A stretch of DNA of 64,000 nucleotides from contig OX424559.1 of the NCBI GenBank assembly GCA_949152475.1, positions 30,423,119 to 30,487,118 on the forward strand, read 5' to 3'. The stretch comes from Terebella lapidaria (taxonomy: Eukaryota; Annelida; Polychaeta; Terebellida; Terebellidae). The stretch's first letter is position 1. Every line of letters starts with the position of its first letter. The notes beneath the pieces were generated by a model. The model saw only the letters and a program-made list of their open reading frames with translations. It was not told the DNA's origin and did not search any database. Both the position numbers and the translations under genes were made by a program. Positions 1 to 60,064 of this stretch are shown piece by piece.

Positions 1-486
1 ATAGTTAGCATATATCATTTCCTATATGTTCACAATTGATTCCTAAGTTGTAAAGTCAATAATAAACGAAGGTCAAGTTGAAGGGCTTCAGAATATTAGC
101 ATATATCATTTCATATATGTCCATGATTGATTCCTATGTCATTTTGTGCTCTGGCCTTGAAAATAAGGTAAAGGTCAAGTTCAAAACCATGAGAATATTC
201 GGCATTCATCATTTCCTATTATGTCTACAATTGACTCCCAAGCTATAAGGTTGATAATAAGCGAGATACTCACTAAATAAAAAAATAAAAGTAGAAAAAT
301 TCACCTTGATTGAAAGCTGGGTTTTTGCGATTCTTCATGCTTGACCTTTACTATGACTGTAACTCTAATTCATGTTCTCAAGTCCTACAAGTTCACACAT
401 GCTCAATGTGATAAGGCACACCTACTAACGTATATGGAACCTGGCTCCCCAGTGGGGGTGAATATTTCACACACAAAATTATCACA

Positions 487-45462: not shown

Positions 45463-46709
45463 TCTAGATCTAATTATTAAGGCATTTCGGCAGAAATGCC
45501 CTTATGGTTTTAGCAGATTTTTACTTTTTCTTTCTTTTTTTTTTTCTTCTTCCGCCAGTTTTGGTTTCCGTACGATAACTTTAGATTGTCTCGATGGATC
45601 CTTGCCAAATTTTCACCAATAGTCAGAAATGATATGTGGAAGAATCCTATTTCTTTGAGCCGGCTCCGAGGTCCGTGAGGATGAATTCAAGGTTTTTGGT
45701 TTCCAGACAATAACTCGAAAAATATTCAGGCAATAGTTGCAGAACTTTGCATGGAGGTTTATATACCACCAAGGAAGAAGTCTCTTGATTTTGGGATTGA
45801 TATGTCAAACGACCTTTGACCTACAGGTCGAAATAATTTTTTGCTGAGTCATCCTTGAGGCTTCCTACATATCTTGGAAAAGGTACGTCGTAGAGTGAAA
45901 CGGACGTTATTTTCGGACTCGTCGCCTTAGACAACCATGTCTGAGCGGTATTATGGATGAACTTTGACCTTGACCAAAAATTTTTTTGCCGAGTTGACAT
46001 TTTTTGTTTTCGTCGATATATCGGAAACGGTGTGTCGTAGAGCGAAATGGACGCTATTTTCGGACTTATCGCCCTAGACAAACATGTCTAAGGTGTATTA
46101 TGAATGAACTTTGACCTTGACCCGAAATTTGTTTTGCCGAGTCGGCATTTTTCGTTTTCGTCGATATCTCGGAAACGGTGCGTCGTAGAGCGAAACGGAC
46201 GTCATTTTTGGACTCGTCGACCTAGACAAACATGTCTCAGGGTATTATGGATGTACTTTGACCTTGACCCGAAATTTTATTGCCGAGTCGGCATTTTTCG
46301 TTTTCGTCGATATCTCGGAAACAGTGCGTCGTAGAGTGAAACGGACGATATTTTTGGACTCCTCGCCCTAGACAAGCATGTCTCAGGGGTATTATGGATG
46401 AACTTTGACCTTGACCCGAAATTTTTTTGCCGAGTCGGCATTTTTCGTTTTCATTGATATCTCTTAAATGGTGCATTGAGAGGGAAACGGACGTTATTTT
46501 CGGACTCGTAGCTCTAGACAAACATGTCTAAGGGTATTACAGATGAACTTTGACCTTGACCTGAAATTTTTTTGCTGATTCAACATTTTTCATTTTCGTC
46601 GATATCTAGGAAACTGTGTGTCGTAGAGTCCGTGGCAATGTTTTGAATATTACAAATTAGTCCTAACACCGAAATGCCTCCAAGGCATCTTTAGGCCTTG
46701 ACGTCTAGT
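45463..46709 (+). mobile_element. Helitron-like non-autonomous element with 147-bp tandem core
   Basis: It starts TCTAGATCTAATTATTAAGG and ends in CTAGT (46,705-46,709). A small stem AAGGC/GCCTT lies 5-6 bp before that terminus. The subterminal GGCATTTCGG near the start recurs inverted (CCGAAATGCC) near the end (46,668-46,677). TC...CTAGT with a hairpin just upstream is the Helitron signature, and subterminal inverted repeats plus a tandem core suggest a Helentron/HINE relative. It contains no coding sequence. Plus-strand polarity is inferred from the hairpin. Confidence 0.55.
45810..46640. repeat. 147-bp tandem repeat, about 5.7 copies
   Basis: The landmark GA(A)CTTTGACCTTGACC recurs at 45,959, 46,106, 46,253, 46,400 and 46,545, with a degenerate first copy near 45,810. 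Each unit contains TCGATATCTCGGAAACGG and TAGACAAACATGTCT. Since 147 is divisible by three, frames stay open across copies, which explains the apparent ORFs here. Confidence 0.88.
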
Positions 46710-49227: not shown

Positions 49228-50856
49228 AATTTCCATAACTGGTTGCCAAGGTAACTATTCTCGAGATATGACCCATAGCAACTATGGTTGCTAGTTGCCC
49301 AACGCCCTGAACAGTGCATTGGGTACCATAAAATCGGTGAACGTGTGGAAGAAAGCCTTTTCTGAAATCCATTCAATAATTTTGAATCTCATTTCACATA
49401 CCAGTCCGGACTTAAACCCCATAGCAACCACGTTGCTAGGGACCGCACGTGAAGTGTGGTTAGTATAGCAAATAGACACATCTGATGGGTGTGGTATATT
49501 TTCTATCATCATGTTTATATTCACATTATTTAGCGATACTATGCATAAATCATCCTGAAAAAAGGCTTCAAAAGTAGCTAATTGAAGCGACTTACTTGTG
49601 TGGCGTCATGAATACTCATTATAATGCTAATGAGCTTCCTATTCCAAGTAATAATATTTTAAAGACTTCAAGTTATCATGTTTTGGTATCTTTAACCGTT
49701 TTATCTTTAACATTGATATCTTTAACCGTTCTCGAGATATTATACAACTTTTGCCTGTTCACCCAGGTAATAGACCAAATTATTCGACCCGAGGGCGTAG
49801 TGTTAGTGAACTATTTCCCGAGGGCGTATCCTGAGGGGAATAGTTCACTGACACTATCCCATCCCGAGGCGCAAATAATTTAGTCTATTACCTGGGTCTA
49901 CAGGCAAAAGTTGTTTTGTTATTATACTGGGTGAAATTTACAATGCATATAAAAGCCAATCGAAGCTCAATGGCGCATGTTCACAGTTTTTCGTTCTCCG
50001 GCTCCAGAGAGCATATATTATTTTAAATAGGATACAGAACATCTTTATGAATATCGTTAGTAAAACGCCATTGAACACAAAAATGATGAATTTAAATATT
50101 GTTTACACAGCACGAATATGAATATCGGGACAAGGAGTATAGTGCTTCAGATTGTACAGCACAGTTGCTGAAATTCATGATGACTTTGTGTGCGGTTTCT
50201 GCATCGCGAGTGTTGCGTGTCGTGAACAGGATCCGGCAAACGTTCTATCACATGACCGGAAGATAGTTCCAAAGACTATTTCATGGCAGAGCATGATCTG
50301 ACAAAATAGATCAAATCTGATCAAATATATCATTTGATCACCTGACGGGTATGAACCAATCGCGGTCCCTAAATTTTACCCACTATATAATAATACCAAT
50401 TATGTATCAAGTTTTTAAAAATATTTCTACTTGAATTAAGAAGCTCATTAGCTATTATAATGAGCAGTCATGACGTCAGACGAGTTAGTTGCTACAATCA
50501 GCTACTTTAGGAGCCTTTTTCTTAATGAACCGTGCATAATTTCGCTGAATAATACGAGTATAAACCTCATAATAGATAATATACCACACCCATAAGATTC
50601 TTTGATCACCATGCTAACCAAATTTAGCATACTGTCCATAGCAACGTGGTTGCTAGGGGGTTAACTCGGGACAGGTATACAAAATGAGATTTAAAAATGT
50701 TCAATGTGTTTCAGAAAAGGCTCTTGTTCACAGTTTCACCAGTTTTGAGGTACCTAATTCGATATTCATGGCGTGGGCCGTAGCAACCACGGTTGCTACG
50801 GGACATATCTCGAGAATAGTTACCTTGGCAACTAATTCTGGTAATTGATAACTTCC
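49228..50856. mobile_element. Large inverted-repeat element
   Basis: The left arm (about 49,228-49,680) and right arm (about 50,398-50,856) are reverse complements, diverged but collinear. Examples are TGGTTGCCAAGGTAAC versus GTTACCTTGGCAAC, GGGTGTGGTATATTTTC versus ATATACCACACCCA, and CTAATGAGCTTC versus GAAGCTCATTAG. The core holds a foldback (49,745-49,913) and short inverted ends ATTATACTGGGTGAAATTTA versus TAAATTTTACCCACTATATAAT (about 49,919 and 50,373). No transposase is seen, so it is non-autonomous. Confidence 0.75.
49745..49913. mobile_element. 169-bp foldback (hairpin) element
   Basis: The two ~80-bp halves are nearly perfect reverse complements around a centre at about 49,829. 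CAACTTTTGCCTG and ACCCAGGTAATAGAC on the left match GTCTATTACCTGGGT and CAGGCAAAAGTTG on the right. It would form a long RNA or DNA hairpin and lies in the core of the larger inverted-repeat element. Confidence 0.8.
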
Positions 50857-51158
50857 GGTTTTAAAACTACCAACATGCGATAGATATTGCTCTGGAATAC
50901 TCGTCAAAATATTGGATATGCCAAACCGCTGAAGTCAGATAATTATCTAAATAGCAATGTCGAGTATCAAGGTCTAAACATACGGATTACCAGACAATGT
51001 TCATGATATTTTGTGTACGGATTTTGAGCCTAGAATTTTGACTGTGAACAATATACGAACCACGCGGTGGCCATTCATGCACCGACGTACACCATCGCGA
51101 CCATACAAACAGTGCTCAAAACACGCTGAGTACAGAAACAATACCCACTGGTCCAACA

Positions 51159-52505
51159 ATGTCACAAGTCACACCACAACAGACTGAAGCACAGGATATT
51201 GATCGTAAAAGAGGTAGGGACCAGGTTTCACCAATTATAATGGAAGCGAACAAACTCCAAAAAAACCAAACGACTCTTCCACAAGATACACCAAAATGGG
51301 CAAAGATTCTTCATGAAGATTTGCGAAGTCAAATCGAAAGTATCAAAACCAGTGTGTCGGATGATTTGACAGAAATGAAGACCAAGCTAAAAGTGCAAGA
51401 CAAAAGAATCAACGTACTGGAAGCGGAGAACCAGTCTCTAAGATCCCAATTTGAGGCTCTCCAGGATGCGGACTCTAAATTGGGAGAACGTATCCTGTAT
51501 CTGGAAGCATACTCCAGGCGTAAACAGCTGATCTTCCATGGCATCAAAGAAGAAGTTTGGGAAAAGGAAGAACAAACAGAAGAAAAGCTAAAAAACTATA
51601 TAAAAGAATCCTTGGACATAGATCCTGACAGCTTGGCCTTTGATAGGGTGCACAGGATAGGCGCCAGAGTCTCAGAGCGAGATAATCCATATATCCGTAA
51701 AAAACCACGCGCGATCATTGCCAGCTTTCTGAAAGGCTCTGACAAGCAGAGAGTGTGGAGTGCCCGTCCATCCTATGAGGAGAGACAAGCTGCGTACGAC
51801 GATGGCAGAGAGGTGATCCACATTAGTCTGAGCTTGCCGAGAGAGATGGAAGCACGGCGTAAACCCCTTTTCCCTATCCTGAGAGCTGCAAAGAAAATTG
51901 ATATCTACAAAGACAGATCATACATACGGGAGGATAAACTGGTAATCAACGGTGCCATTTACACAGTATCCAATCTAGACGACTTACCTAGGGACTTAAA
52001 TCCAAAACATTTGGCCACCCAGGTAAAAGGTGAACTTACCTGCTTTTGGGGAAGAAACTCACCCCTATCAAACCACTACAAGTGCTGCTTCTTCGTCGGT
52101 GACACAATGTACAACTGCACCGAACAGTTTTTCCTACAGCAAAAAGCCACTTTCTTCAAGGACCCAGCCGTAGCAAGTGCCATCATGCGATCATCGGATC
52201 CAGGAGAGCAGAAACAACTATCCAAGAAACTTCGCATCCCGAAGGAAAACAGGTGGGAGGAAGAGTCTCTTCGTGTGATGGAAATAGGGATCAGAGAGAA
52301 GTTCCAACAGAATAGCGACCTCAAAAAGTTCCTCCTGGATACAAAGGACTCAACCATCGTCGAAGCTTCGGAGTACGACAAGTTCTGGGGAGCCAGATGC
52401 AACATCAACTCGGAGAACATCGAGGACCCCTCTTCCTGGACCGGTCAAAACAAGCTCGGTGAGCTCCTGATGTCACTCAGGTCAAACCTCCAAGGTCAAG
52501 CTTAG
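51159..52505 (+). CDS. LINE ORF1 protein with C-terminal NADAR (YbiA-like, DUF1768) domain
   Basis: This intact 448-residue frame starts at an ATG. Residues ~65-118 form a coiled coil, ~120-200 resemble the L1 ORF1p RRM (RILYLEAYSRRKQLIFHGI, then FDRVHRIG), and ~205-275 the L1 C-terminal RNA-binding region. Residues ~293-445 match the NADAR family: FWGRNSPLSNHY (296-307), Y318 and TEQFF (E322), K329, SSDPGEQKQL, RW (366), KFQQN (381-385), IVEASEYDKFWGA (E402, D407, W410) and NKLGELLMSLR (431-441). NADAR proteins act on NAD/ADP-ribose-type N-glycosidic bonds, and some remove ADP-ribose from guanine bases. Its length equals a complete domain and the conserved polar residues are present. Its role in retrotransposition is unknown. 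Positions 50,857-51,158 upstream show no gene. Confidence 0.9.
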   Translation: MSQVTPQQTEAQDIDRKRGRDQVSPIIMEANKLQKNQTTLPQDTPKWAKILHEDLRSQIESIKTSVSDDLTEMKTKLKVQDKRINVLEAENQSLRSQFEALQDADSKLGERILYLEAYSRRKQLIFHGIKEEVWEKEEQTEEKLKNYIKESLDIDPDSLAFDRVHRIGARVSERDNPYIRKKPRAIIASFLKGSDKQRVWSARPSYEERQAAYDDGREVIHISLSLPREMEARRKPLFPILRAAKKIDIYKDRSYIREDKLVINGAIYTVSNLDDLPRDLNPKHLATQVKGELTCFWGRNSPLSNHYKCCFFVGDTMYNCTEQFFLQQKATFFKDPAVASAIMRSSDPGEQKQLSKKLRIPKENRWEEESLRVMEIGIREKFQQNSDLKKFLLDTKDSTIVEASEYDKFWGARCNINSENIEDPSSWTGQNKLGELLMSLRSNLQGQA

Positions 52506-53224
52506 TTTGCAGGTTGCATATATGAGCCATATACCGAACTAAAACACTGCTCTGTGGAAAAATAACTGGTTGGCCCCTACAGACCTCAATAATATTAAAA
52601 ACTTTGCATCTGACTGTATATGCATACAATTAACATGTCACTGAGAGCAGGCCATTATGCTTGAATATGATATCTACATATATACATATATACATTTCAA
52701 AACAATGGCTTTGGAAGTATGCTGTTTTGTGAGTATCAAGACTTGCTACTTGCTACAATATATGTATGTTAAAAATATATATATATTTGTTGTTGAAACA
52801 TATAATTATTGATAACTACCATACATCATTATATTTGATTGTCATATTATCTTCCCAATATAGTTCATATGTAAAATGTATTTAAACTTCAGGAAAACAC
52901 TATGAAAAGGTCAATTGAACAATATTGGTCCAACTGACCATGTTAAAATTATACTTTCAGGCTTTGTCTCCCTCACACATGCTCATAGATTATAATTTAC
53001 TGATCAGATGATGGTTTTAGAAAAAGAGAAAATTACTAAAACAGAGAATTTACTAAAAACATTTGATTTAAAAAAACGTAGGTATGTTTTGGTGGTGTAT
53101 GAAATGTTCACTTTAAGACCATTTTTCGCATGATATATGACCGTTCACATATGAAACTGAATATATAATTTTATCTGGGAGGCCTGTTTTACTTATGTTT
53201 ACATGCACGTTGGCCCCAATACTT
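52506..53224. other. LINE inter-ORF region, AT-rich
   Basis: No coding frame is seen. Short (AT)n/(TATACA)n microsatellites lie near 52,678-52,695 and 52,770-52,785. The first copy of a local direct repeat begins at about 53,188. Confidence 0.4.
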
Positions 53225-53345
53225 GAGTAAGGTGCGGTATTTGACTTTCACCATGGTGATCTAACCCCCCTCATTGGCTAGAGAGGCCCCTAGCACCAAC
53301 TCAAATATACTATAGCTCACTAATGTGCTCGTACCGCACCTTAAA
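53225..53345. mobile_element. Small MITE with target duplication and matching empty site
   Basis: An insert of about 121 bp has inverted repeats TAAGGTGCGGTA (53,228-53,239) and TACCGCACCTTA (53,332-53,343). It is flanked by CAATACTT on both sides (53,217-53,224 and 53,347-53,354). A second copy of the surrounding sequence (from 53,669) reads CTCAATACTTAGGCC without the insert. An 8-bp duplication would suggest hAT and a 9-bp one (CCAATACTT) a Mutator-like source; no transposase is present. Confidence 0.75.
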
Positions 53346-53354
53346 CCAATACTT

Positions 53355-53935
53355 AGGCCAATTGTACATTAAGAGTACAACTCAACCCGCTGCCCATGAT
53401 CTCATTATTTTTGCATAGACGGCAGCCCGCTGGTTATTAGGAATTGAGTGTAACGCTCAACCTCGGAGACATGCTTTGCTGTTGTAGCCACACAATATGA
53501 TTCTTCATTTAGACCAACCATGTACGTTTCGGTAGTGCATGAAAATAACCTCCCAGAAATTTATACGAGTGAAATAGATGTCATAATATCCACCTTCCTC
53601 GCGGGATATACGTGTATGATCGTTGCATGTATATAATTCCTCAATGCGCTCTTTGTTCTCAGAGTCAGGTTTTGTTTACATGCACGCTGGCCTCAATACT
53701 TAGGCCAATAGTACATTAAGAGTACAACTCAATCCGCAGCCCATACTCGCTCTTTATTCGCATGGACGGCAGCCCGCTATTAAGAATCTCGGAGACACGA
53801 TTTGTTGTTATTGTTGCTTTTTACATTCATCATGACCGTTTTAATCAAAACAACTGTGTAGTACAACTCAACTCTACCCCGTGTTCGTACTGAATTCCAG
53901 TTATCCGCATGGGTGATAGCTGTCAACAGTGAAAT
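53355..53935. repeat. Local direct repeats in the LINE inter-ORF region
   Basis: A block containing GTTTACATGCACG(T/C)TGGCC, GTACATTAAGAGTACAACTCA and GACGGCAGCCCGCT occurs at 53,188-53,480 (with the small insert) and 53,669-53,815. A weaker third copy begins at about 53,868. No gene is seen. Confidence 0.7.
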
Positions 53936-55347
53936 GAGTAACAAATATACCGGTACACTGTATTTAGAGCTCTCTATGTATACCAAGCAACTAGTAGTCC
54001 CTATCGATCGATTTGTTTTTATTTATTTTGATGATGATCTTTTTGTAATAAGACCTGGAAAGTACTATACTCATTATCATAGCCAAGCTTTAATTGTTTT
54101 ACATTCACTAAGGTCGATTTAAGGGACCATTACCATCAATATTGCTCTTTGACTGATTATCTGTGCTCACGATAATTTCCACATTAGCTACTAGATGAGC
54201 CCCACAGTGACTTCCGAGCTCGACTGCTACATATGTTAGAACCTACTGATGGTTTCAATGCATGATATACGAGGTGCATGTACGGAATGCTTTGATGAGA
54301 TGGCTTTAATGACCGCTGGTTTGATTATACATTTACATGTAGATAAGTTTATTTAAGAAAAACATGTAAATACACTCTGTATACTGTAATGCCATGCAAA
54401 TAATTGTAGCCAGTAATACAATCTTGTTCCGAGATACATCAGTCGGTCACGGCAGTGACAGAAGATATATGCTGAGAACTGTTGTTATGAAATTTTAGTG
54501 TAATCTGGATCTACCTTAAACCTGTCTCTCTTCTTGTCGTTTTTTCTCTCTTCCGTTATCTTCTTTATCTTCACTTTCTCTCTTCCTTCTCTTATCCTTT
54601 ATTTTCCTTTCCTGCCGATTTTCTGCTTCTATCTTCTTTTAGCAACAGGTCTTCACGATCTTTTTTTTCTGTGGGTACACGGTGTCCGACTGTGAATCTT
54701 GGATCGAAGACGAATTCATGAAATGTTGAAGTAAGTACAGGTTTACTTTTTCGGATGTGATTTTATGATTTGAATGTAAAACATACCTGTATAAAAGTGT
54801 GCAGATTGTAACAGGGTGAAGGTTATATCATATGGTTTCAAAATATCAAAGTGTTGCTGATCGAACGGTAGAAACTGCTGTTATTACGTGTATGTTATAA
54901 CTGGTTAAAGTAGTTTCGATTTTGAGACTGGGTATCGCAATTCGAGAATCATGCAAATCCGCCTTTTTAATTACTTGTAAAGCACGGATTTAGACGGCAT
55001 ACCGAAAAATGAGTATTTTATGCGTGTATGTGAGTAATATACACATTGTATGCATGGGCATGTTTCCCAAATAACTTTGATCCCGGCATCAGCATCTTTT
55101 TTTCTGGTGAGTACGGCATCCAAGTTTGACGAGGGTCCAAGTGAGTTTTTATCGCCTGGTATATACCTATCGCGGTACCTGAACGCACATTTCTTCTCTC
55201 GGGTCATGCTTATTGTGATTCGATTTTATGCACTGATTTCGATTGAAACATGCATAACAGAGACTACTGGTGCGAAAAGCTACAGTTTTGAAGTTAGACA
55301 ACTTTACATTTCGGTTCGGGACAGGCCGTATTTTAATATACCACCCA
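53936..55347. other. Region before ORF2 with pyrimidine tract and splice-like signals
   Basis: A pyrimidine-rich stretch (54,520-54,647) ends in TTCTTTTAG, resembling a 3' splice site. Donor-like GAAGTAAGTA (about 54,729) and CTGGTGAGTA (about 55,104) follow. No coding exon can be identified, so these may be chance or part of the LINE 5' UTR. Confidence 0.35.
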
Positions 55348-58300
55348 ATGGATAAATTACATATTATTTCTTTGAACGTTAAAGGTCTTAGAACTCAGAA
55401 AGAAAAAAGGGATAAACTTTTCCACTGGATGTTTAGTTGCCACAACCCAGACATTATTATGCTGCAGGAAACTCACAGCACACCAGCAGATGAACAGACA
55501 TGGGCTGAAGAATGGGGTAAAGATAACTATGTAGCTTTTGACTCCCACGGGGAAACAAACTCTAGAGGAGTTTGCATATTAATAAAGTCTACGCTAAACA
55601 TCGATCTTCACCATTCCACATTGAGTAATAATGGAAGATATATTATTATGGATATAACTGTAGAAGACCGCAGGTTAACGATAGCAAACGTTTATGCCCC
55701 AAACTCTGACAACCCAGATTTCATTATAGAACTGGCTCAAGGTCTGGATAATTACGCAAATGATGATCGCATAATAGCAGGAGATTTCAATTGCGTTCTG
55801 AACGAACAAATCGATAAGAAGGGGGGTGCCCACAGACACTCCAACACAAACATGAGTAACGCTTTAAATGCATATATTCTAGAAAGCGATCTTGTTGATA
55901 TTTGGAGACAACAACACCAGGATACCCAGCGCTTTACATATAGATGTAAATACAAAACACACCAGATCTTCTCTCGTCTAGATTACTTCCTAATCTCGTT
56001 TGGACTCAGCAGTCTAGTGCAAACCTCAGATATAAAACCATCGATCTTAACTGATCATTCTCTCATATCACTCAAAGTTAACATTTCAGACACTTCTAGG
56101 GGGCCGGGTCACTGGAAACTAAACTGTTCACTACTGCAAGATCAAAATTATGTGACTTGTATAAAAGGTATAATATTGGAAGCAATTGACGAGGCGCGCA
56201 ATCTAGATCCAGAAAAACGATGGGAATTTGTAAAAGTTAAAATAAGAGGTGAAACTATTAGATACGGCTGTATAAAAGCGAAACATACACGTAACCTGTT
56301 GCAAGTATGGGACAGAAAGTTGAATATCCTTGAAAATAAATTTATCAGGGACCCAAGTGATAACGTGAAGGCGGATATAGAGAACGCTAAATCTGAGATA
56401 AATAATATTATTACCGAAAAAATAAAGGGGAATATAATGAGATCTAAGATTGGCTGGTTTGAGGAGGGCGAAAAACCCACTAACTTCTTTTTGGGACTAG
56501 AAAAACGGAACTACAATAAAAAGACAATAAAAAGTTTACAAGCGCATGGTCATTACATTTCACAGAAAGACGAAGTACTCGAATATGTTGTTGAATTTTA
56601 CAAAAAATTGTATACTAAGCCAAGAGATATTCCAGATTTGGATGAATTCGAAAGATATTTTCATGACATCACAATACCGAGGCTGACAAACGAAGAAATG
56701 GGCTCATGTGAAGGGTTGTTGACAGAAAAAGAGTTATTAGAGTCGTTGAAATCGTGTAAAAATAACAAAACTCCCGGCTCCGACGGACTACCAGCAGAAT
56801 TTTATAAAGCATTCTGGCCTAGCATAAAAGAAGTTCTTGTAGAAGCCCTAAACTTCAGTTACGATGAAGGTAGATTGGCCCATACACAACGAGAAGGAAT
56901 CATAATGCTCCTACCCAAAAAAGATAAGAATATACATCATATCAAAAATTGGAGACCCATTACCTTACTCAATCAGGACTACAAATGAGCAGCCAAATCA
57001 ATAGCTAAACGTTTATGTAAATATCTGAATAATATAATTAATGAAGATCAGACCGGTTTCATTAAAGGAAGATATATTGGGGAAAATATATATAGGGTAC
57101 AAAACATTATGCACTTAGCAGACTATGAAGATATAGAGGCACTACTGGTAGGGATTGATTTCGAAAAGGCGTTTGATTGTTTAAGTTGGGAATTCGTTCA
57201 AAGGGCTCTGAAAGCATTCAATTTTGGACCACAAAGTCAGAAGTGGGTAAGTGTATTCAACACATCGGTTTACAGCAGGGTAACAAATAACGGGTGGATG
57301 TCCCACCCATTTAACTTAGAGGGAGGGGCGAGACAAGGGTGTCCGTTATCGCCTTATCTTTTTATTATAGCAGCTGAGATTATGGCTATCCACTTTCGTC
57401 AAGATAATAATATTGAGGGAATTACATGCAGTTACAAAGAATTTAAAATCTCCCAATACGCCGAAGACACAGTTTTAACTATAAAATATTCTGAACAAAA
57501 TCTGAAAAATGCGTTACGAGTGTTCAAGACATATGAAAAATTTTCCGGATTACGCGTCAATATTGATAAAACCGAAATAATGCCGATTGGCGCCATTAAA
57601 TATGAGTATGATATATTAAGTCCAGATTTGGGGATTAGATGGTCACATGGCCCACTTAAAATGCTAGGGATTGAAATCTCACACGACTTTGAATTATTCA
57701 TGGAATCTAATTACGAAAAGGCTCTTTCCAAATTCAATAATTATGCTAAATTATGGAAAAGCAGGAAATTGTCGCTCTTCGGAAAAGTGACTATAATAAA
57801 TACATTCCTAATTTCACAAATAGTATATCTTATGTCAGTATTACCAACTCCATCTCAGAAAATTATGAAACAGATTGAAACTATAATCTTCAGCTTTCTT
57901 TGGGATAATAAACCAGACAAAATTAAACGGGAAACTATGAAATATATGAAAACCGACGGGGGGCTGTCAGTACCCGATATACAACTAAAAAATCAGTCCT
58001 TGAAAATAGCTTGGGTCAAACGAATCATTAGTGATCATATGAAAAGCTGGTCGGTATTAACGTACGTTAATATGCCAATCAAAGGTATAAAATTTTGGGA
58101 ATCAAATTTGAATAAGACAGACACTATTTTAATTGCAGACAGATGTATAGACTCCCTGACTAAAGATATCATTAGTAGTTGGTTCAACTACAACTTTGAG
58201 GAAGCATATAATATACCATGCTTTAATACACAATACATTTTCGGAAACTCCAACATCAAGATAAAAAATGCACCTATTTACTTGAACTCTGTGACTGAGA

Positions 58301-59115
58301 GAAAACTGGTTGTTTCAAACTTTCTTGAGCCAACTGGCAGAGGAAAGCTTTATGTAGATTTCGTACAAAATCTTAATATTAAACTTGATTATATTTCTTA
58401 CTATGGCATAGTCTCAGCGATCACTGACACAAGAAAAAAACTAGCTAACGAAAATGATACTATTCAACTAAAAAAAGATACGCTATATATTTCCGAAATT
58501 TCAAAATGCAAGAAAATATGTAAAAAGGTTTATGACAGTTTGATTAAAAGAAAAACCAATATTTCGAGCATTACGGGCCTTCAAAAATGGGTAGATTATT
58601 TCAAAGGACAACTAACAGAGGAACACTGGTTACGGGGTATGGAAAATATGTATGAAACGACAAGTTACACTGCGTTACTGAATTTTCAATTTAAACTATT
58701 ACATCATGTACTAGTCACAAACGAAAAACTATTTCTATGGAATCTATCCGATAGCGATTTATGCATATGGTGTGCAGAAGAAATAGAAACTTTACCACAC
58801 ATATTCCTGGAGTGTGAAGTTACAAAACGATTCTGGTCAGAAATCATATCTTGGATTTGCTCGAAAATAGAAAATAAGTTTGAAATATCTAATGTACAGA
58901 TAATATGTGGATGTATCGGTAACCGGAACGACCCTTTAGATGACATCGTACTGATGGTCAAAAAAATTATATATGCGGAAAAATGTAAAGGGAACTTTTT
59001 GACTTTTCAGCGTTTTCGTAATTATTTCAGAGAGATGATTGGAATCCAAAAACAAATAGCAAAGAATAATTCAAAGTTGGACATTTTCAATGAAAAGTGG
59101 AAAAATTTTGCATGA
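55348..59115 (+). pseudogene. LINE ORF2: APE endonuclease and reverse transcriptase, one in-frame stop
   Basis: The best start is the ATG at 55,348 (MDKLHIISLNVKGLR); a GTG upstream in the same frame is less likely. The APE endonuclease is complete, with LNVKG, MLQETH, IIAGDFNCVLN (about 55,780), SRLDY (about 55,972) and TDHS (about 56,049). RT blocks follow: GSDGLPAEFY, WRPITLLNQDYK, DFEKAFD (about 57,157), GARQGCPLSP and YAED (57,457-57,468). The TGA at 56,986-56,988 interrupts an otherwise open frame that continues to 59,115. The second breakage is GAA where the first catalytic aspartate codon of YADD is expected (57,463-57,465). A CxxC...H...C knuckle lies near 58,762-58,816. The layout matches the L1/Tx1 group. 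The copy should be inactive. Confidence 0.9.
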
Positions 59116-59315
59116 TTCTCATAGTCGGGCCTTTAACGTACATTTAAGATCCATTTATCCAATTAATTTCATTGATTCATTACAAGCCTGTCCGAACATT
59201 TTTCTTATGCAATGTTTACTTTTCTTGTAGCTCACCACAATCTGTCATTGTACTCACTATGTATGTATGTTGACTACGAATAAAGTGCATATTATAAAAA
59301 AAAAAGAAAAAAAAA
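59116..59315 (+). other. LINE 3' UTR and A-rich tail
   Basis: A ~165-bp untranslated region is followed by AATAAA (59,279) and an A10-G-A9 tail (59,296-59,315). The following ~95 bp to a C12 run (59,400-59,411) is flank. Confidence 0.8.
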
Positions 59316-59416
59316 TGCAGCTAACTGCGAGAGTCGACATTAGAGCTCGAGCACATCATCAGCACCCTGACAGCTGAATGTATACTACTCAACGTTACTC
59401 CCCCCCCCCCCTCTTC

Positions 59417-60064
59417 TGGTGTGCAGAAGAAATAGAAACTTTACCACACATATTCCTGGAGTGTGAAGTTACAAAACGATTCTGGTCAGAAATCATATCT
59501 TGGATTTGCTCGAAAATAGAAAATAAGTTTGAAATATCTAATGTACAGATAATATGTGGATGTATCGGTAACCGGAACGACCCTTTAGATGACATCGTAC
59601 TGATGGTCAAAAAATTTATATATGCGGAAAAATGTAAAGGGAACTTTTTGACTTTTCAGCGTTTTCGTAATTATTTCAGAGAGATGATTGGAATCCAAAA
59701 ACAAATAGCAAAGAATAATTCAAAGTTGGACATTTTCAATGAAAAGTGGAAAAATTTTGCATGATTCTCATAGTCGGGCCTTTAACGTACATTTAAGATC
59801 CATTTATCCAATTAATTTCATTGATTCATTACAAGCCTGTCCGAACATTTTTCTTATGCAATGTTTACTTTTCTTGTAGCTCACCACAATCTGTCATTGT
59901 ACTCACTATGTATGTATGTTGACTACGAATAAAGTGCATATTATAAAAAAAAAAGAAAAAAAAAATGCAGCTAACTGCGAGAGTCGACATTAGAGCTCGA
60001 GCACATCATCAGCACCCTGACAGCTGAATGTATACTACTCAACGTTACTCCCCCCCCCCCCCCC
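59417..60064 (+). repeat. Tandem duplicate of the LINE 3' end and its flank
   Basis: It repeats 58,768-59,411 at an offset of 649 bp with almost no change: one transversion (AAAATTATATA to AAATTTATATA, around 59,613), one extra A in the tail and a longer C run. It includes the last ~115 codons of ORF2, the 3' UTR, the A tail (59,945-59,965), the same 90-bp flank and a C15 run (60,050-60,064). Because the flank beyond the tail is included, segmental duplication at the C run fits better than a second retrotransposition. Confidence 0.85.

What the first reader, a model, noticed from the sequence alone, without database searches (positions are those of the whole stretch)
52035..52493. NADAR (YbiA-like) domain fused to a LINE ORF1 protein
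The sequence shows one uninterrupted 448-residue frame joining an L1-type ORF1p (coiled coil, RRM-like part, C-terminal part) to a full-length NADAR domain with its conserved residues (E322, K329, E402, D407, W410, NKLG at 431-434). Known NADAR proteins process NAD/ADP-ribose conjugates, and some reverse guanine ADP-ribosylation. My inference is that the element carries an enzyme that removes ADP-ribose from its RNA or DNA, perhaps countering PARP- or DarT-like host defence. The frame is intact although ORF2 is broken. I do not know this fusion as an established system but cannot search.
Basis: partly seen in the sequence, partly recalled or inferred. Interest (0 to 1): 0.88.

Follow-up and report, generated by a model that had tools for sequence, protein, structure and literature searches.

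The report
LINE ORF1 protein carrying NADAR enzyme

The parts
50856..59316 (+). LINE element, approximate extent (5' end not certain; A-rich tail about 59296-59315)
   Evidence: homology to copy L011 begins at 50856; AATAAA at 59279-59284 and an A-rich tail follow ORF2; no target-site duplication found for this copy
51159..52505 (+). ORF1: coiled coil + RRM + CTD + NADAR, 448 aa, intact
51294..51515 (+). coiled-coil helix, residues 46-119
   Evidence: DSSP of the model
51516..52022 (+). RRM and C-terminal domain of L1 ORF1p type, about residues 120-288
52035..52499 (+). NADAR domain, residues 293-447
52122..52124 (+). codon of E322 (P. nicotianae E43, distal-ribose contact)
   Evidence: 43 of 43 sequences
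52143..52145 (+). codon of K329 (P. nicotianae K50)
   Evidence: K in 32 of 43 sequences
52362..52364 (+). codon of E402 (P. nicotianae E125, YbiA-subfamily glutamate)
   Evidence: 42 of 43 sequences
52506..55347 (+). long spacer between ORF1 and ORF2, largely shared with copy L037 up to 55214
   Evidence: 97.2-99.6% identity in the pieces 52506-53224, 53346-54021, 54017-54545 and 54542-55214
55348..56988 (+). ORF2 first part: endonuclease and start of RT, ending at the in-frame TGA
56989..59115 (+). ORF2 second part: RT and zf-RVT, 708 aa open frame, L1 group
   Evidence: searches used the part from 57109
59417..59761 (+). partial duplicate of the ORF2 3' end within a duplicated 3' end
   Evidence: tblastn 99.1% over 115 aa; sequence

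Best explanation
The window holds an L1-group LINE whose ORF1 protein is an L1-type RNA chaperone (coiled coil, RRM, CTD) with a C-terminal NADAR domain of the YbiA subfamily. Shown here: the fusion is real, recurs with related ORF1s across diverged families, is as constrained as the polymerase where both could be measured, and keeps the residues around the distal ribose. Inferred: it is an active ADP-ribosyl hydrolase, held by the ORF1p multimer on the LINE RNA, cDNA and target site, that removes ADP-ribose from nucleic-acid bases (guanine N2 by analogy with known NADARs) or from the RNP, and so lets retrotransposition go on despite host ADP-ribosyltransferases.
For: Profile, fold and residue matches to NADARs. 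PMC11543638 section 12, read, shows that the equivalents of E402 and K329 matter for guanine de-ADP-ribosylation; PMC11125620 (passages) reports that all NADARs it tested hydrolysed guanosine-ADPr. Distal-ribose and pyrophosphate residues 322, 329, 366, 402, 407, 410 are far more conserved than random sets of NADAR positions (mean entropy 0.37 against 2.06, p 0.00006). Omega for NADAR 0.029-0.097 in six groups, each below that of the ORF1 N-part of the same group and each rejecting omega = 1; ORF2 of the second clade 0.107 and 0.070 in two sets. ORF1 N-part and NADAR distances correlate (Mantel r 0.72 for 43 sequences, 0.885 for 24 own-genome rows, 0 of 5000 permutations each). Near-identical whole elements recur, and listed NADARs near ORF2 hits lie upstream on the same strand with one exception.
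Against: No activity was measured. K329 is not kept in 11 of 43 LINE sequences against 1 of 116 stand-alone NADARs, and adenine-side contacts are changed (P361, S370 in the window), so the substrate may differ from that of known NADARs. E88A, the equivalent of E322, had only a minor effect in vitro, though rescue of DarT1 toxicity was lost. The one host writer family tested, Scabin-like PF22596, gave no hit in this genome; its control rang nowhere, so this is inconclusive. A DarT search did not complete. Purifying selection would also fit a binding-only role. Two of 33 database relatives of the whole ORF1 have no NADAR in Pfam (P0030, P0033).
Confidence: 0.5

Rival explanations
1. NADAR works on the element's own RNA ends or caps (ADP-ribose on terminal phosphates, NAD-type caps) as an RNA-processing step of the life cycle and not against a defence.
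For: PMC12477816 proposes RNA processing for TE NADARs; PMC9503650 raises RNA processing for viral NADARs (passages); a nematode trans-splicing paper mentions the NADAR domain 25 times (PMC9303266, search listing only). The fusion partner has an RNA-binding fold. Adenine-side contacts are remodelled in LINE copies.
Against: No RNA-end activity of NADARs was seen in the passages read; the activity reported there is on guanine bases.
Confidence: 0.2
2. NADAR is an ADP-ribose reader that docks the LINE RNP on PARP-modified chromatin at nicked target sites; hydrolysis is incidental.
For: PARP1/PARP2 act at human L1 integration sites and their loss lowers retrotransposition (PMC8535693 passages). 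The domain matches an ADP-ribose-bound NADAR.
Against: The residues of the hydrolytic centre E322 and E402 are kept in 43 and 42 of 43, stronger than plain binding would need; adenine contacts, which a reader would keep, are the relaxed ones.
Confidence: 0.15
3. NADAR is kept only as a nucleic-acid-binding or folding module of ORF1p with no ADP-ribose function.
For: Some LINE copies lack K329; adenine-side contacts are not conserved.
Against: E322, W366 and W410 invariant and E402 in 42 of 43 sequences of about 37% mean NADAR identity.
Confidence: 0.1
4. The fusion is a chance joining of a host gene or a decayed copy and not a LINE feature.
For: ORF2 of the window copy is broken.
Against: The fusion is found in 24 distinct own-genome ORF1s put into alignment A1, in near-identical whole elements of the second ORF2 clade, four of them with convincing target-site duplications, and at repeated distances from L1-group ORF2s.
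Confidence: 0.01

Closest known systems
Tx1 LINE ORF1 proteins with YbiA-family NADAR, Crassostrea gigas (PMC12477816, passages)
   Same: NADAR within ORF1 of a LINE; Tx1 belongs to the L1 group (recalled; PMC10294476 writes L1-Tx1)
   Different: that paper gives one sentence and suggests RNA processing; here copies, selection, fold, active site and linkage to a second ORF2 clade were examined; I saw neither their figure S2 nor the Repbase sequences
Gypsy Pol NADAR of Ectocarpus (PMC12477816, passages)
   Same: NADAR carried by a retrotransposon
   Different: LTR element, N-terminal part of Pol; a Gypsy-type frame with NADAR after RT was seen here in passing at L053
Human L1 ORF1p (2ykp, 2yko), type II ORF1
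   Different: human ORF1p has no NADAR (recalled)
NADAR hydrolases: P. nicotianae 8bau, E. coli YbiA 2b3w, DarT1-linked NADARs
   Same: fold (8bau, 2b3w), distal-ribose glutamates, W, D (8bau)
   Different: stand-alone or toxin-linked; LINE copies often change K50, R79, Y84 and R93 equivalents
Esterase-type (type IV) ORF1 of CR1/L2 LINEs (PMC4120745 passages)
   Same: an enzyme domain recruited into ORF1
   Different: esterase and not an ADP-ribose enzyme; database protein P0032 holds both GDSL and NADAR
Macro and NADAR domains in RNA-virus polyproteins (PMC9503650 passages)
   Same: genetic parasites carrying ADP-ribose removers
   Different: viruses, not LINEs

Membership tests
NADAR superfamily (PF08719) | profile score over the curated cut-off | tested here: met
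   137.3 bits against 35.1
NADAR superfamily (PF08719) | YbiA fold | tested here: met
NADAR, YbiA subfamily | Glu (not Asp or His) in the last strand near the centre | tested here: met
   E402 aligns with E125; 42 of 43
NADAR guanine-ADPr hydrolase | hydrolysis of N2-ADPr-guanine | not testable with these tools
   needs enzyme assay
DarTG1 toxin-antitoxin | adjacent DarT1 partner | not tested
   DarT (PF14487) genome search did not complete
DarTG1 toxin-antitoxin | catalytic Asp in place of the last-strand Glu | tested here: not met
   Glu at 402
Type II (L1-type) LINE ORF1 | coiled coil, then RRM, then CTD | tested here: met
   definition from PMC4120745 passages
Type II (L1-type) LINE ORF1 | sequence profile of L1 ORF1p (PF02994, accession as printed in PMC4120745) | tested here: inconclusive
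   not among the 9 families listed at E <= 1, though the fold matches
APE-type LINE | ORF2 with endonuclease and reverse transcriptase | tested here: met
   one in-frame stop
APE-type LINE | poly(A) end and target-site duplication | tested here: inconclusive
   A-rich tail yes; duplication not found for the window copy; convincing in 4 of 7 tested copies, all 7 of the second ORF2 clade
L1 group of LINEs | ORF2 nearest L1 ORF2p | tested here: met
   126 bits to L1 ORF2p against 28 to R2, the only LINE-type RTs in the hit list
Tx1 clade | place in an RT tree with Tx1 references | not tested
   no reference RTs at hand

The most novel reading that the evidence does not exclude
In this host lineage NADAR is a near-universal, repeatedly exchanged or recruited anti-defence module of retrotransposons. 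It occurs with two ORF2 clades (L1 group, and a non-L1 clade with a 2A-like ORF2 leader), in two ORF1 architectures of the same genome (L1-type, and an RRM/CCHC-like one in L054), in a database protein with GDSL (P0032), and in a Gypsy-type frame (L053). That would imply a widespread invertebrate defence that ADP-ribosylates retroelement nucleic acid or RNPs.
Probability: 0.35. Interest if true: 0.88.

Novelty: new member of a known kind. Interest (0 to 1): 0.66.

Why it matters
The roles of NADARs across eukaryotes are called unclear in PMC11125620 (passages). A NADAR kept by selection on young retrotransposons offers a natural system in which to find one. It also points to ADP-ribosylation as a front between hosts and their transposons, as already proposed for RNA viruses (PMC9503650 passages), and can be tested with one enzyme assay and one retrotransposition reporter.

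Tried and rejected
Chance or decayed fusion: rejected by copies. Window ORF2 belonging to an unrelated element: suspected because the fetched C13 copy ended before ORF2 and the eight intact ORF2s of other fetched families were of another clade. Rejected: 12 of 73 L1-group ORF2 hits have a listed NADAR upstream on the same strand within 12 kb, against 0, 1 and 0 of 73 in three control placements; the other 61 have no listed NADAR there, and only 150 NADARs were scored.

Single capture of NADAR by LINEs: the tree of 122 NADARs is unresolved and mixes labels (19 changes). A smaller tree of 48 LINE and 21 stand-alone rows puts the LINE rows on one side with SH-aLRT 94.9, not starred. For it I dropped P0012, P0020 and P0027-P0032 and took the stand-alone rows, but for a Caenorhabditis one, from a stand-alone cluster of the first tree, which favours that result; so a single capture is not claimed.

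Shellfish CARP-1-like writer in this genome: no Scabin-like hit, control silent, inconclusive. That shellfish CARP-1 modifies guanine N2 is from passages of PMC8053099 and PMC11543638; the host is not known to be a mollusc. Structure of the L054 ORF1 from one sequence: pLDDT 34, not used. Search with the window NADAR piece alone gave 2 proteins; with alignment A2 536, of which 120 were listed.

Papers: passages only of PMC12477816, PMC11125620, PMC9503650, PMC4120745, PMC10294476, PMC8053099 and PMC8535693; passages and all of section 12 of PMC11543638; outline and abstract of PMC4441479; PMC9303266 search listing only. Claims of absence in print rest in one open-access library without preprints. 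One search was badly framed (its hits were dominated by LINE words). One search (YbiA and retrotransposon) gave only PMC12477816.

Failed or empty calls: 5 and 72 (wrong frame), 48 (omega not parsed; done in 53), 59 and 87 (term too short), 121 (no new loci to scan).

Full report

2. It is a LINE feature. The own genome (761.6 Mb, unnamed) gave 150 scored NADAR hits out of 973 first-look candidates, all over cut-off; 6 of the 150 have a stop inside the match, by my count of the rows. A search with ORF1 residues 1-288 gave 135 scored hits out of 549. Of these 135, 69 have a listed NADAR hit close downstream on the same strand, the gap peaking at 22 nt (36 cases) and 52 nt (17); seen from the other side, 68 of the 150 NADAR hits have such an ORF1 partner and 82 do not. 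I fetched 15 of the 66 unpartnered ORF1s, chosen by hand and mostly with long frames. All 15 carry NADAR sequence in frame; 12 cover 149 or more of 154 profile positions by my reading of the list, with L039, L042 and L052 ending early and L047 broken after 65 (- the last prints each range). Twenty 10-kb loci around top NADAR hits: NADAR in 20 of 20 and a match to the ORF1 N-part in 18 of 20 (not L018, L025); ORF1 frames of 408-457 aa stop to stop in 18 of 20; ORF2 frames over 1000 aa in 8 of 20. Pairs of these loci are co-linear over whole elements: L019/L020 98.8% over 7.1 kb, L027/L032 99.3% over 6.5 kb, L029/L030 98.5% over 7.0 kb. Of 7 of them tested, shared flanking words of 13, 11, 10 and 8 nt (L020, L032, L030, L019) were reached by 0, 0, 2 and 5 of 500 shuffles; L024 is weaker (8 nt, 27 of 500); L027, L029 and the window copy showed none. 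These whole-element and duplication results are for the second ORF2 clade of paragraph 3. For the window's own clade the evidence is the copies and the fixed distances.

3. Two ORF2 clades. The eight intact ORF2s of the 10-kb loci are 54-99.8% identical to each other but only about 23-31% to the window ORF2, over short pieces. L029 scores 58 bits with L1 ORF2p and 47 with R2. L029 and L019, the two given to Pfam, show RVT_1 and endonuclease but no zf-RVT at E 0.01. All eight begin with a leader that holds a hydrophobic stretch and ELNPGP or ELHPGP, which resembles a 2A peptide (the 2A reading and the label CR1/Jockey-like are recalled and untested). L1-group ORF2 hits: 12 of 73 have a listed NADAR upstream on the same strand within 12 kb, against 0 downstream and 1 and 0 on the other strand. 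Other clade: 15 of 80 (14 different NADARs) against 0, 0 and 0; all 15 lie in the first 41 rows and none in rows 42-80. So 61 of 73 and 65 of 80 have no listed NADAR; with only 150 of 973 candidates scored this says little either way. Distances repeat (3328 four times, about 3280 three times). ORF1s are held to be exchanged between LINE clades (PMC4120745 passages), so an old exchange of the ORF1-NADAR unit is the simplest reading; direction and date are unknown.

4. More than one ORF1 architecture. I then fetched the upstream side of one family from rows 42-80 (L054). It has a 545-aa frame with Pfam NADAR at 257-384, E 2.2e-32, after a part that by eye is RRM-like with a CCHC knuckle. Pfam names no other domain there, and a single-sequence model was useless. 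Database protein P0032 joins GDSL lipase (over cut-off) and NADAR, with a PHD match below cut-off; P0027 joins NADAR and an aspartyl-protease match below cut-off; L053 has aspartyl protease, RT and NADAR in one frame. Whether L053 is a true Pol fusion or a LINE fragment inserted in a Gypsy-type element I could not tell. Of 33 database relatives of the whole ORF1, 31 have NADAR in Pfam and 2 (P0030, P0033) do not.

5. Selection. Codon models (GY+F3X4; omega = 1 tested with topology and kappa fixed) on six groups of own-genome ORF1s, one of which overlaps others, give omega 0.097, 0.087, 0.029, 0.068, 0.030 and 0.052 for NADAR and 0.148, 0.089, 0.063, 0.076, 0.057 and 0.096 for the N-part; all reject omega = 1. 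Four groups have long trees (total lengths 15-24), so their values are rough; the two shallower groups (0.7-2.5), both of the second clade, agree. ORF2 of the second clade in two similar but not identical sets gives 0.107 and 0.070. ORF1 N-part and NADAR distances correlate with r 0.72 (43 rows) and 0.885 (24 own-genome rows), 0 of 5000 permutations each. So NADAR has largely been inherited with its ORF1 since before these families diverged.

6. Active site. By the phmmer alignment, E43, K50, W89, E125, D130 and W133 of 8bau are E322, K329, W366, E402, D407 and W410; Y84, D86, R93 and R79 are P361, E363, S370 and K356 (contacts from PMC11543638 section 12). In 43 LINE sequences E322, W366 and W410 are invariant, E402 is in 42, D407 in 37, K329 in 32. 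These six positions are more conserved than random sets of NADAR positions (p 0.00006), the adenine-side set is not (p 0.35). In 116 proteins taken as stand-alone NADARs (P0038-P0154 less P0107, from the 120 listed of 536; some may be fragments of longer proteins) K329 is K in 115 and 361 is F or Y in 104, against 32 of 43 and 13 of 43 in LINEs. The LINE set was found with the window protein, so it leans to the window's kin, and the rows are related, so the Fisher p of 2e-6 is not a clean probability. Reading: the end that holds the sugar to be cut is kept, the adenosine end has been rebuilt.

7. Mechanism. ORF1p of L1 is a trimeric RNA-binding protein that coats the LINE RNA (established knowledge; fold match). 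A NADAR fused to its C-terminus would be presented in many copies on the RNP. Known NADARs hydrolyse ADP-ribose from guanine N2 (PMC11543638, PMC11125620), and some animals make this mark: shellfish CARP-1 (PMC8053099 passages; Schuller et al. say that NADAR action on the CARP-1 mark is assumed and not confirmed). PARPs also act at L1 integration sites, and ZAP/PARP13 restricts human L1 (abstract; there the zinc finger domain suffices, by a section heading). I therefore favour removal of host-added ADP-ribose (0.5), then RNA-end processing (0.2), then reading (0.15). No Scabin-like transferase was found here in a six-frame search whose control was silent.

8. Novelty. One passage of PMC12477816 already states that ORF1 of several C. 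gigas Tx1 LINEs appears to contain YbiA-family NADAR. The window element is thus a new member of that kind. The spread over two ORF2 clades and over different ORF1 architectures in one genome, the selection and the remodelled pocket I did not find in print (searches; one open-access library, no preprints).

Noticed in passing
L054:1128-2762 (G000:C2:34542400-34545400): A LINE family with another ORF1 architecture (RRM/CCHC-like by eye, then NADAR, then a long tail) upstream of an ORF2 frame of 1250 aa.
   Followed up: partly
L053 (G000:C8:827300-829900): Gypsy-type aspartyl protease and RT followed in the same open frame by a NADAR domain; either a real Pol-NADAR fusion or a LINE fragment landed in frame.
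   Followed up: partly
ORF2 N-termini of L018, L019, L021, L022, L024, L026, L029, L032: Shared MGxSxxQxRxAIGxF leader, hydrophobic stretch and 2A-like E-L-N/H-P-G-P motif at the start of ORF2.
   Followed up: partly
5' ends of L019, L020, L024, L027, L029, L030, L032, L034, L036: Elements begin at or next to ATGGCGG or ATGGCCG words (several as AAGATGGCGG) that recall the YY1-type start of mammalian L1 (recalled, not tested).
   Followed up: no
L037 (C13 copy of the window element): Arrays of a satellite with a period of about 134 bp, related to window 1-268, border and twice interrupt a 99% copy of the element, with 4-5 nt overlaps at the two interruptions; a 147-bp satellite related to window 45474-46628 follows.
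   Followed up: no
window 59320-60060: Tandem partial duplication of the LINE 3' end, each copy followed by a poly(C) run.
   Followed up: no
window 2948-37995: Tandem arrays with units of about 317-327 bp and long duplications (mostly 82-94% identity in the 40 longest pairs printed) fill the first half of the window.
   Followed up: no
P0033: A EukProt ORF1-like protein with a 2A-like motif in its N-terminal part and no NADAR in Pfam: relatives without the domain exist.
   Followed up: no
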